Positions 28,005 through 28,881 of a DNA stretch of 34,444 nt are shown here, piece after piece. The notes under the pieces are model-generated. The model was not told the origin of the DNA, did not search any database, and saw only the letters and a program-made list of their open reading frames with translations. Each line of letters opens with the position of its first letter. Position 1 is the stretch's first letter. The DNA is taken from the NCBI GenBank assembly GCA_018828505.1, contig JAHJVF010000477.1:1-34444 (forward strand), written 5' to 3'. The stretch is from Bacteroidota bacterium. GTDB lineage: Bacteria; Bacteroidota; Ignavibacteria; Ch128b. Both the position numbers and the translations under genes were made by a program.

Positions 28005-28029
28005 AATTTTTGCTTTCTTGTTTTAATCT

Positions 28030-28253
28030 GCCGCCCCAAATTCTCCTCTAGATAGGATTTGAGAACCTATCTAACATACAGTGGGTGTCAGCCCAAAAAC
28101 CTTTTACGTCCACTGAGCTATTTGATTACCAAGTAATCAAAATGGCTACGATCATATAAATGATAGTTGAGGCCTGTAATTGGCTATTGGAGTCTAACTC
28201 CCTTGGTAAAAGTGTTAGTTCTCAAATATTTACCAAGAAGAATTCAGAGCGGC
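28030..28253 (-). ncRNA. Candidate structured non-coding RNA between zapA and rny (6S-like is one hypothesis)
   Basis: Closing stem 28235-28253 with 28030-28048: 19 contiguous pairs including 5 G.U. Hairpins: 28202-28210/28229-28237 and 28050-28056/28066-28072. Loop-loop complement 28218-28227/28057-28066 (10 bp). Near-perfect TTTGATTAC-TTG-GTAATCAAA hairpin. TATACT box at 28258-28263. Confidence 0.6.
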
Positions 28254-28269: not shown

Positions 28270-28551
28270 TTAAGAAATGTCTTCCAGAAGCAAATTGAGT
28301 TTATTAATTCGTTCGGTCGCCTTATCTATAGATTTGTTGAATGATTCCTTCTCTGCAAACAAGTCATTCGCTATATTAAGCGATGCTAATACTGCAACTG
28401 TTTGGCTTGGTTGATCGCTCATATCTTCCCGCAAATCATTCATAAGTGTGTTGACATAATCGCCAAGATCTTTTGCACGTTCTTCGTTTTCAACTAAAAG
28501 TGAATATTCTTTATCGAATATTTTGATTTTAAGCTTCTTCTGGTTAGACAT
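28270..28551 (-). CDS. zapA: Cell division protein ZapA
   Basis: KIKIFDKEYSLLVENEERAKDLGDYVNTLMND..QTVAVLASLNIANDLF. Confidence 0.88.
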   Translation of the reverse strand: MSNQKKLKIKIFDKEYSLLVENEERAKDLGDYVNTLMNDLREDMSDQPSQTVAVLASLNIANDLFAEKESFNKSIDKATERINKLNLLLEDIS

Positions 28552-28569
28552 TATTGTATTGAAACATTC

Positions 28570-28881
28570 TTAAGAAATATGAACTTCCATCCTCTCCAGG
28601 ATTTCAGAAATTCTACTTTTTAATGCTTGTCTCTCCTTCTCAGAAATAATAATTGTATTTTTTATTTTATTGAATTGAACCTTTATGTCATTTAACTCGG
28701 TCTCTCGAGTTAATTTTTCTTTGGTCAATTCGGCGTTTAAGTTTCTAAAGTTAGAAATCTCTTCTTGTAATTCGTGATTTTCTTTTTTGAGATCGTTGTA
28801 CTTTACGGCTAAATCTTGAATATTCTTTTCGAGATTAAGAAGTGTTTCTTCGAATTTGGCTTTTTTTTCTTCAATGCCCAT
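28570..28881 (-). CDS. Small coiled-coil protein, possibly a ZapA-partner (ZapB-like) protein
   Basis: 103 aa, almost entirely charged heptad-like sequence, sits between pheT and zapA; start overlaps the pheT stop. Confidence 0.6.
   Translation of the reverse strand: MGIEEKKAKFEETLLNLEKNIQDLAVKYNDLKKENHELQEEISNFRNLNAELTKEKLTRETELNDIKVQFNKIKNTIIISEKERQALKSRISEILERMEVHIS

What the first reader, a model, noticed from the sequence alone, without database searches (positions are those of the whole stretch)
28030..28253. Structured RNA candidate filling the zapA-rny gap
Seen directly: on the minus strand, 28253-28235 (GCCGCTCTGAATTCTTCTT) pairs with 28048-28030 over 19 uninterrupted pairs (5 G.U), enclosing about 186 nt. 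No ORF in the track covers it. Internal hairpins include CTTGGTAAA/TTTACCAAG, GGAGT-TAG-ACTCC, ATCAT-TTAT-ATGAT, TTTGATTAC-TTG-GTAATCAAA and AGATAGG/CCTATCT. A TATACT box lies just upstream of the stem. Established knowledge: in gammaproteobacteria the 6S RNA gene (ssrS) lies next to zapA. Inference: this may be a divergent 6S-like RNA, though it is longer and more branched than the usual 6S rod, or it may be a different RNA class.
Basis: partly seen in the sequence, partly recalled or inferred. Interest (0 to 1): 0.8.

Follow-up and report, generated by a model that had tools for sequence, protein, structure and literature searches.

The report
Divergent 6S RNA beside zapA
The gap between zapA and rny holds this bacterium's 6S RNA, a known RNA brake on RNA polymerase; standard annotation misses it in most of this bacterial class because it has drifted far in sequence and gained a forked tip.

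Summary
Window 28253-28029 (minus strand) encodes a 6S RNA (SsrS). Rfam's 6S model RF00013 matches it end to end (48.7 bits, cut-off 46.4, E 9e-9). The match appears only with permissive filters; the default scan of the window reports nothing. The 19-pair closing stem is exact, and the fold is 6.4 SD more stable than shuffles.

The same RNA follows zapA in the relatives examined. A covariance model built here finds exactly one copy in 168 of 197 genomes of the class and one copy in this genome. All 97 named matches from the pattern scan have zapA upstream, rny downstream, or both. On a plain MAFFT alignment 94.9% of pair cells pair and 25 of 42 pairs show changes on both sides, far above all controls.

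Anatomy: closing stem, template helix P2, central bubble with a probable pRNA start at 28214, a covarying hairpin in the 3' bubble strand like the release hairpin of E. coli, and a forked (two-hairpin) tip in 87 of 92 relatives.

It is a new member of a known kind. RNA-polymerase binding, pRNA synthesis and expression are inferred.

The parts
28029..28253 (-). 6S RNA (SsrS) gene, whole structured unit
   Evidence: RF00013 model 1-187, 48.7 bits; own covariance model R1, 114.5 bits, only match in the genome
28235..28253 (-). closing stem, 5' strand
   Evidence: 19 pairs; helices 1 and 2 of the alignment covary, 11 of 12 pairs with changes on both sides
28030..28048 (-). closing stem, 3' strand
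   Evidence: as above
28217..28227 (-). helix P2, 5' strand AUUUGAGAACU (downstream duplex and pRNA template)
   Evidence: MFE; helix 3, 95.8% paired, G-C to A-U exchange at columns 36/228 (29 to 15)
28057..28067 (-). helix P2, 3' strand GGUUCUCAAAU
   Evidence: as above
28203..28216 (-). 5' strand of the central bubble; predicted pRNA start at 28214 (RNA nt 40), pRNA 5'-GUUAGUUCUCAAAU...
   Evidence: position by analogy with B. subtilis C40 and E. coli U44; GAACUAAC almost invariant in relatives; inference
28048..28074 (-). hairpin of the 3' bubble strand (UUAGAUAGG/CCUAUCUAG), candidate release hairpin
   Evidence: forms when the template is blocked, at a cost of 1.4 kcal/mol; native arms pair better than swapped arms in relatives
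28083..28202 (-). apical arm from GGG (28202-28200) to CCC (28085-28083)
   Evidence: helices 4-6
28169..28180 (-). invariant core ATTACAGGCCTC
   Evidence: used as a search pattern
28100..28113 (-). invariant core GTGGACGTAAAAGG
28114..28168 (-). forked tip: hairpins 28164-28151 and 28141-28121, where Rfam's consensus has one loop
   Evidence: 87 of 92 relatives have two hairpins here
28270..28551 (-). zapA, upstream neighbour
   Evidence: PF05164, 57.4 bits
26442..28004 (-). rny (RNase Y), downstream neighbour
   Evidence: PF12072, HD and KH domains

Best explanation
This is the single 6S RNA of an Ignavibacteria-type bacterium (phylum Bacteroidota in the wide sense). The RNA folds into a rod that imitates an open promoter: closing stem, template helix P2, central bubble, apical arm. 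It is inferred to occupy the housekeeping sigma factor-RNA polymerase holoenzyme, mainly when growth slows. When nucleotides return, the polymerase would copy the 5' bubble strand from about nt 40 into a short pRNA (5'-GUUAGUUCUCAAAU...). This opens P2, frees its 3' strand into the UUAGAUAGG/CCUAUCUAG hairpin, and releases the RNA. Shown here: sequence and structure homology, covariation, single copy, position next to zapA. Inferred: expression, polymerase binding, pRNA, release.
For: RF00013 matches end to end, above gathering score, E 9e-9. Fold z -6.4. Covariation: 94.9% of cells paired, 219 cells with changes on both sides against 58 in shuffles and 27-42 when slid; a tree-based null puts only pairs of this structure on top. 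One copy in this genome and in 168 of 197 genomes of the class. Position beside zapA and/or rny in all 97 named loci, and after zapA in other families of the phylum, as in E. coli zapA-ssrS. The 3'-bubble hairpin: native arms -8.7 against -4.8 kcal/mol swapped, 39 of 45 sequences, p 5e-7. A release hairpin of this kind is established for gamma-proteobacterial 6S (PMC8876501). 6S RNA and pRNAs were detected in Bacteroides thetaiotaomicron (PMC7366714).
Against: The Rfam score passes its cut-off by only 2.3 bits, and most relatives score below it. The model built here does not recognise E. coli 6S RNA. No expression data were available. No convincing promoter and no terminator was found next to the gene. 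The p-value above treats related sequences as independent.
Confidence: 0.93

Rival explanations
1. A cis-acting structured leader of rny: the RNA lies in the 5' UTR of rny and controls RNase Y synthesis, for example by autoregulation.
For: It ends 25 nt before the rny start codon, and rny follows it in nearly all relatives.
Against: In several families of the phylum the RNA still follows zapA although rny is not next (L202, L203, L205, L208); many relatives end the closing stem with a T run that looks like a terminator; full-length match to 6S.
Confidence: 0.04
2. A structured RNA of another class that happens to resemble 6S, with a target other than RNA polymerase.
For: Marginal Rfam score; forked tip and longer length than the usual 6S rod.
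Against: The match covers the whole 6S model including the bubble, the GGG/CCC block and the GCC...GGA...AAAA core; relatives reach 47.1 and 42.3 bits with RF00013; same neighbour zapA as E. coli ssrS.
Confidence: 0.03
3. Chance palindrome or artefact of an AT-rich gap.
For: None beyond the gap being noncoding.
Against: z -6.4; conserved across the class with compensatory changes.
Confidence: 0.005

Closest known systems
6S RNA / SsrS, Rfam RF00013 (E. coli ssrS)
   Same: Rod with closing stem, central bubble and apical arm; GGG/CCC block; P2 helix that can open in favour of a 3'-bubble hairpin; gene directly after zapA.
   Different: About 40 nt longer; forked tip; low sequence identity; downstream neighbour rny instead of fau (ygfA); the P2 3' strand lies mostly in the loop of the 3'-bubble hairpin (median 2 of 6 nt shared), whereas in E. 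coli it forms the 3' arm (read).
6S-1 RNA of Bacillus subtilis
   Same: Bubble-and-P2 design; predicted pRNA start at a C near nt 40 (pRNA beginning with G), compare TSS C40 in PMC8876501.
   Different: B. subtilis has a short 3'-bubble hairpin in the free RNA and a central bubble collapse helix; no collapse helix was looked for here.
6S-Flavo, Rfam RF01685 (Bacteroidetes)
   Same: A divergent 6S of the same wide phylum that needed its own Rfam family (PMC2864571).
   Different: RF01685 does not match the window even at E 10.
Bacteroides thetaiotaomicron 6S RNA
   Same: 6S of the same wide phylum, expressed and with pRNAs (PMC7366714).
   Different: Its sequence was not compared here.

Membership tests
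6S RNA (RF00013) | covariance-model match above the gathering score over the whole model | tested here: met
   48.7 bits against 46.4, positions 1-187 of 187; not reported under default filters
6S RNA (RF00013) | rod-like fold with closing stem, large central bubble and apical arm, supported by covariation | tested here: met
6S RNA (RF00013) | P2 helix beside the bubble whose 5' strand would be the pRNA template | tested here: met
   helix 3, 95.8% paired with a G-C to A-U exchange; GAACUAAC nearly invariant
6S RNA (RF00013) | single terminal loop at the tip, as in Rfam's consensus (a usual trait, not a functional criterion of membership) | tested here: not met
   two hairpins here and in 87 of 92 relatives; a variable region, so it does not exclude membership
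6S RNA (RF00013) | gene next to zapA (typical of beta- and gamma-proteobacteria) | tested here: met
   E. coli reference
6S RNA (RF00013) | abundant transcript that binds the housekeeping holoenzyme | not testable with these tools
   no RNA-seq or protein work available
6S RNA (RF00013) | serves as template for pRNA and is released by it | not testable with these tools
   only the fold with a blocked template was computed
6S-Flavo (RF01685) | match to the Rfam model | tested here: not met
   absent from the permissive scan up to E 10

The most novel reading that the evidence does not exclude
The 6S RNAs of this clade form a structural subfamily with their own release switch: both strands of the bubble fold into hairpins whose loops carry the two strands of P2, so P2 could be partly a loop-loop contact that pRNA synthesis breaks, and the forked tip is a second contact site for RNA polymerase or a protein.
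Probability: 0.12. Interest if true: 0.6.

Novelty: new member of a known kind. Interest (0 to 1): 0.35.

Why it matters
It fills an annotation gap: RF00013 passed its cut-off in 1 of 118 sampled genomes of the phylum, while the model built here finds one 6S RNA in 168 of 197 genomes of the class. It shows that 6S next to zapA is not a proteobacterial peculiarity, which suggests an old linkage of 6S with the cell-division gene. It gives comparative evidence for a release-type hairpin in the 3' bubble strand outside the gamma-proteobacteria.

Tried and rejected
Default Rfam scan of the window: no match; the same family with permissive filters on 551 bases gives the match. Genome search with RF00013 missed it as well. 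The sigma-70 promoter scan found no more than shuffles do, and no terminator; the TATACT box is not kept in the sister species. A first hairpin scan used wrong anchors in many sequences and was replaced; one search failed with a script error. MAFFT's structural mode was not available. A hairpin enclosing the template (CTTGGTAAA/TTTACCAAG) was tested: -2.2 against -1.2 kcal/mol swapped, 66% of sequences better than their swapped mean, so it is suggestive only. The R1 model does not detect E. coli 6S, so homology to E. coli rests on Rfam's model, layout and gene position. Wehner et al. 2014, the survey of 6S RNA among bacteria, is not in the paper library, so whether it already lists this class could not be checked.

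Full report
What was checked. The 225-nt strand folds 6.4 standard deviations better than its dinucleotide shuffles.

Identity. Rfam's default scan of the window returned nothing. A permissive scan of 551 bases returned RF00013 (6S RNA) over model positions 1-187, 48.7 bits against a gathering score of 46.4, E 9e-9. The match has a 55-nt stretch where the model has 8 nt, which is the forked tip. Because the score is only just above the cut-off, the case was tested independently with relatives.

Relatives. In 61 related genomes zapA was located in 57. For 30 of these the DNA next to zapA was read, and every stretch holds a related RNA, with the blocks GAACYAAC, GGG, CAGGCC and GTGGAAG...CCCAC...GGTTCTT recurring with variations. 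A pattern from two of these blocks, run over 85,462 species genomes, gave 109 loci. Twelve were chance hits without the rest of the motif, and 97 were real. The titles of the real ones are mostly Ignavibacteria, Ignavibacteriales, Melioribacter(aceae), Kapabacteria and Chlorobiota, plus some loosely titled MAGs. Contig lengths identify three members of the window's own family as MAGs titled Ignavibacteria or Ignavibacteriales (G002, G003 and G004 contigs of 121,782, 21,929 and 86,481 bases). All 97 have zapA upstream, rny downstream or both: 85 both, 4 zapA only, 8 rny only, the single-sided ones mostly at contig ends.

Covariance. Forty-five diverse sequences were aligned with MAFFT without structural information. 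The RNAalifold structure of 42 pairs has 94.9% of cells paired, 25 pairs with changes on both sides and 219 such cells, against 58 +/- 9 in shuffles and 27-42 when the partner strand is slid. The model R1 built from this alignment scores the window at 114.5 bits, its only match in the genome at E up to 10, and gives exactly one match in each of 168 of 197 genomes of the class. The window is among the sequences the model was built from, so its own score is not independent; the class-wide result largely is. In the wider phylum 79 of 148 genomes match, and in twelve loci from families outside the class the RNA again follows zapA, in some without rny next to it. RF00013 passes its cut-off in 1 of 118 sampled genomes of the phylum, with the caveat that the fast filters of that search lose weak matches.

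How it most likely works. By homology with E. coli and B. subtilis 6S RNA (PMC8876501) the rod imitates an open promoter and holds the housekeeping holoenzyme; copying of the 5' bubble strand into a pRNA opens P2 and releases the RNA. Here P2 is AUUUGAGAACU/GGUUCUCAAAU, and the start is predicted at C40 (28214). When nt 27-40 are blocked, as a 14-nt pRNA would do, the predicted fold loses only 1.4 kcal/mol and a 9-pair hairpin UUAGAUAGG/CCUAUCUAG appears in the 3' strand. In 45 diverse relatives such a hairpin has a median of 10 pairs, and its native arms pair much better than arms exchanged between species, 39 of 45 (for 97 sequences). So the hairpin appears to be under selection. That it drives release is inferred from E. 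coli, where the equivalent hairpin does so. One difference: the P2 3' strand sits mostly in the loop of this hairpin, so hairpin and P2 compete for only about two of six nucleotides in the median sequence.

The tip. In 87 of 92 relatives the segment between the two invariant core blocks folds into two hairpins. Between the window and its sister species L002 the letters of both hairpins differ widely while both hairpins remain (sequences). The function of the fork is unknown; a protein contact or simple spacer are both possible.

Expression. No convincing promoter was found next to the gene, and a full promoter would not fit between zapA and the RNA (16 nt) unless it lies partly inside zapA. 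The window has no T run after the closing stem, whereas many relatives do (GCGGTTTTTTT). Transcription from within or upstream of zapA followed by processing is therefore plausible but untested.

Verdict. An ordinary regulator in an under-annotated lineage: a divergent but genuine 6S RNA. The library held no paper with both '6S RNA' and 'Ignavibacteria', but the survey most likely to mention it (Wehner et al. 2014) could not be read, so novelty is stated cautiously.

Noticed in passing
L013, L014, L015, L017-L019, L021-L026 (between zapA stop and the RNA): A GTTCTTT-like element lies upstream of the 6S closing stem (about 28-50 nt by eye) in relatives outside Ignavibacteriales; it repeats the P2 3' strand and is complementary to the pRNA template AAAGAAC, so it could mask the template in a precursor. 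It is absent from the window.
   Followed up: no
L202, L203, L205, L208: In some families of the phylum the gene after the RNA is not rny but a metallophosphoesterase-like ORF or an ORF on the other strand; the RNA stays behind zapA.
   Followed up: partly
28570-28881 (-): A 103-aa coiled-coil-like ORF between pheT and zapA with a sub-threshold ZapB match (21.4 bits, cut-off 31.5); a short ORF recurs at this position in other families.
   Followed up: partly
28237-28203 (-): A hairpin enclosing the pRNA template (CTTGGTAAA/TTTACCAAG); similar but different hairpins occur in a minority of relatives, with weak statistical support.
   Followed up: partly
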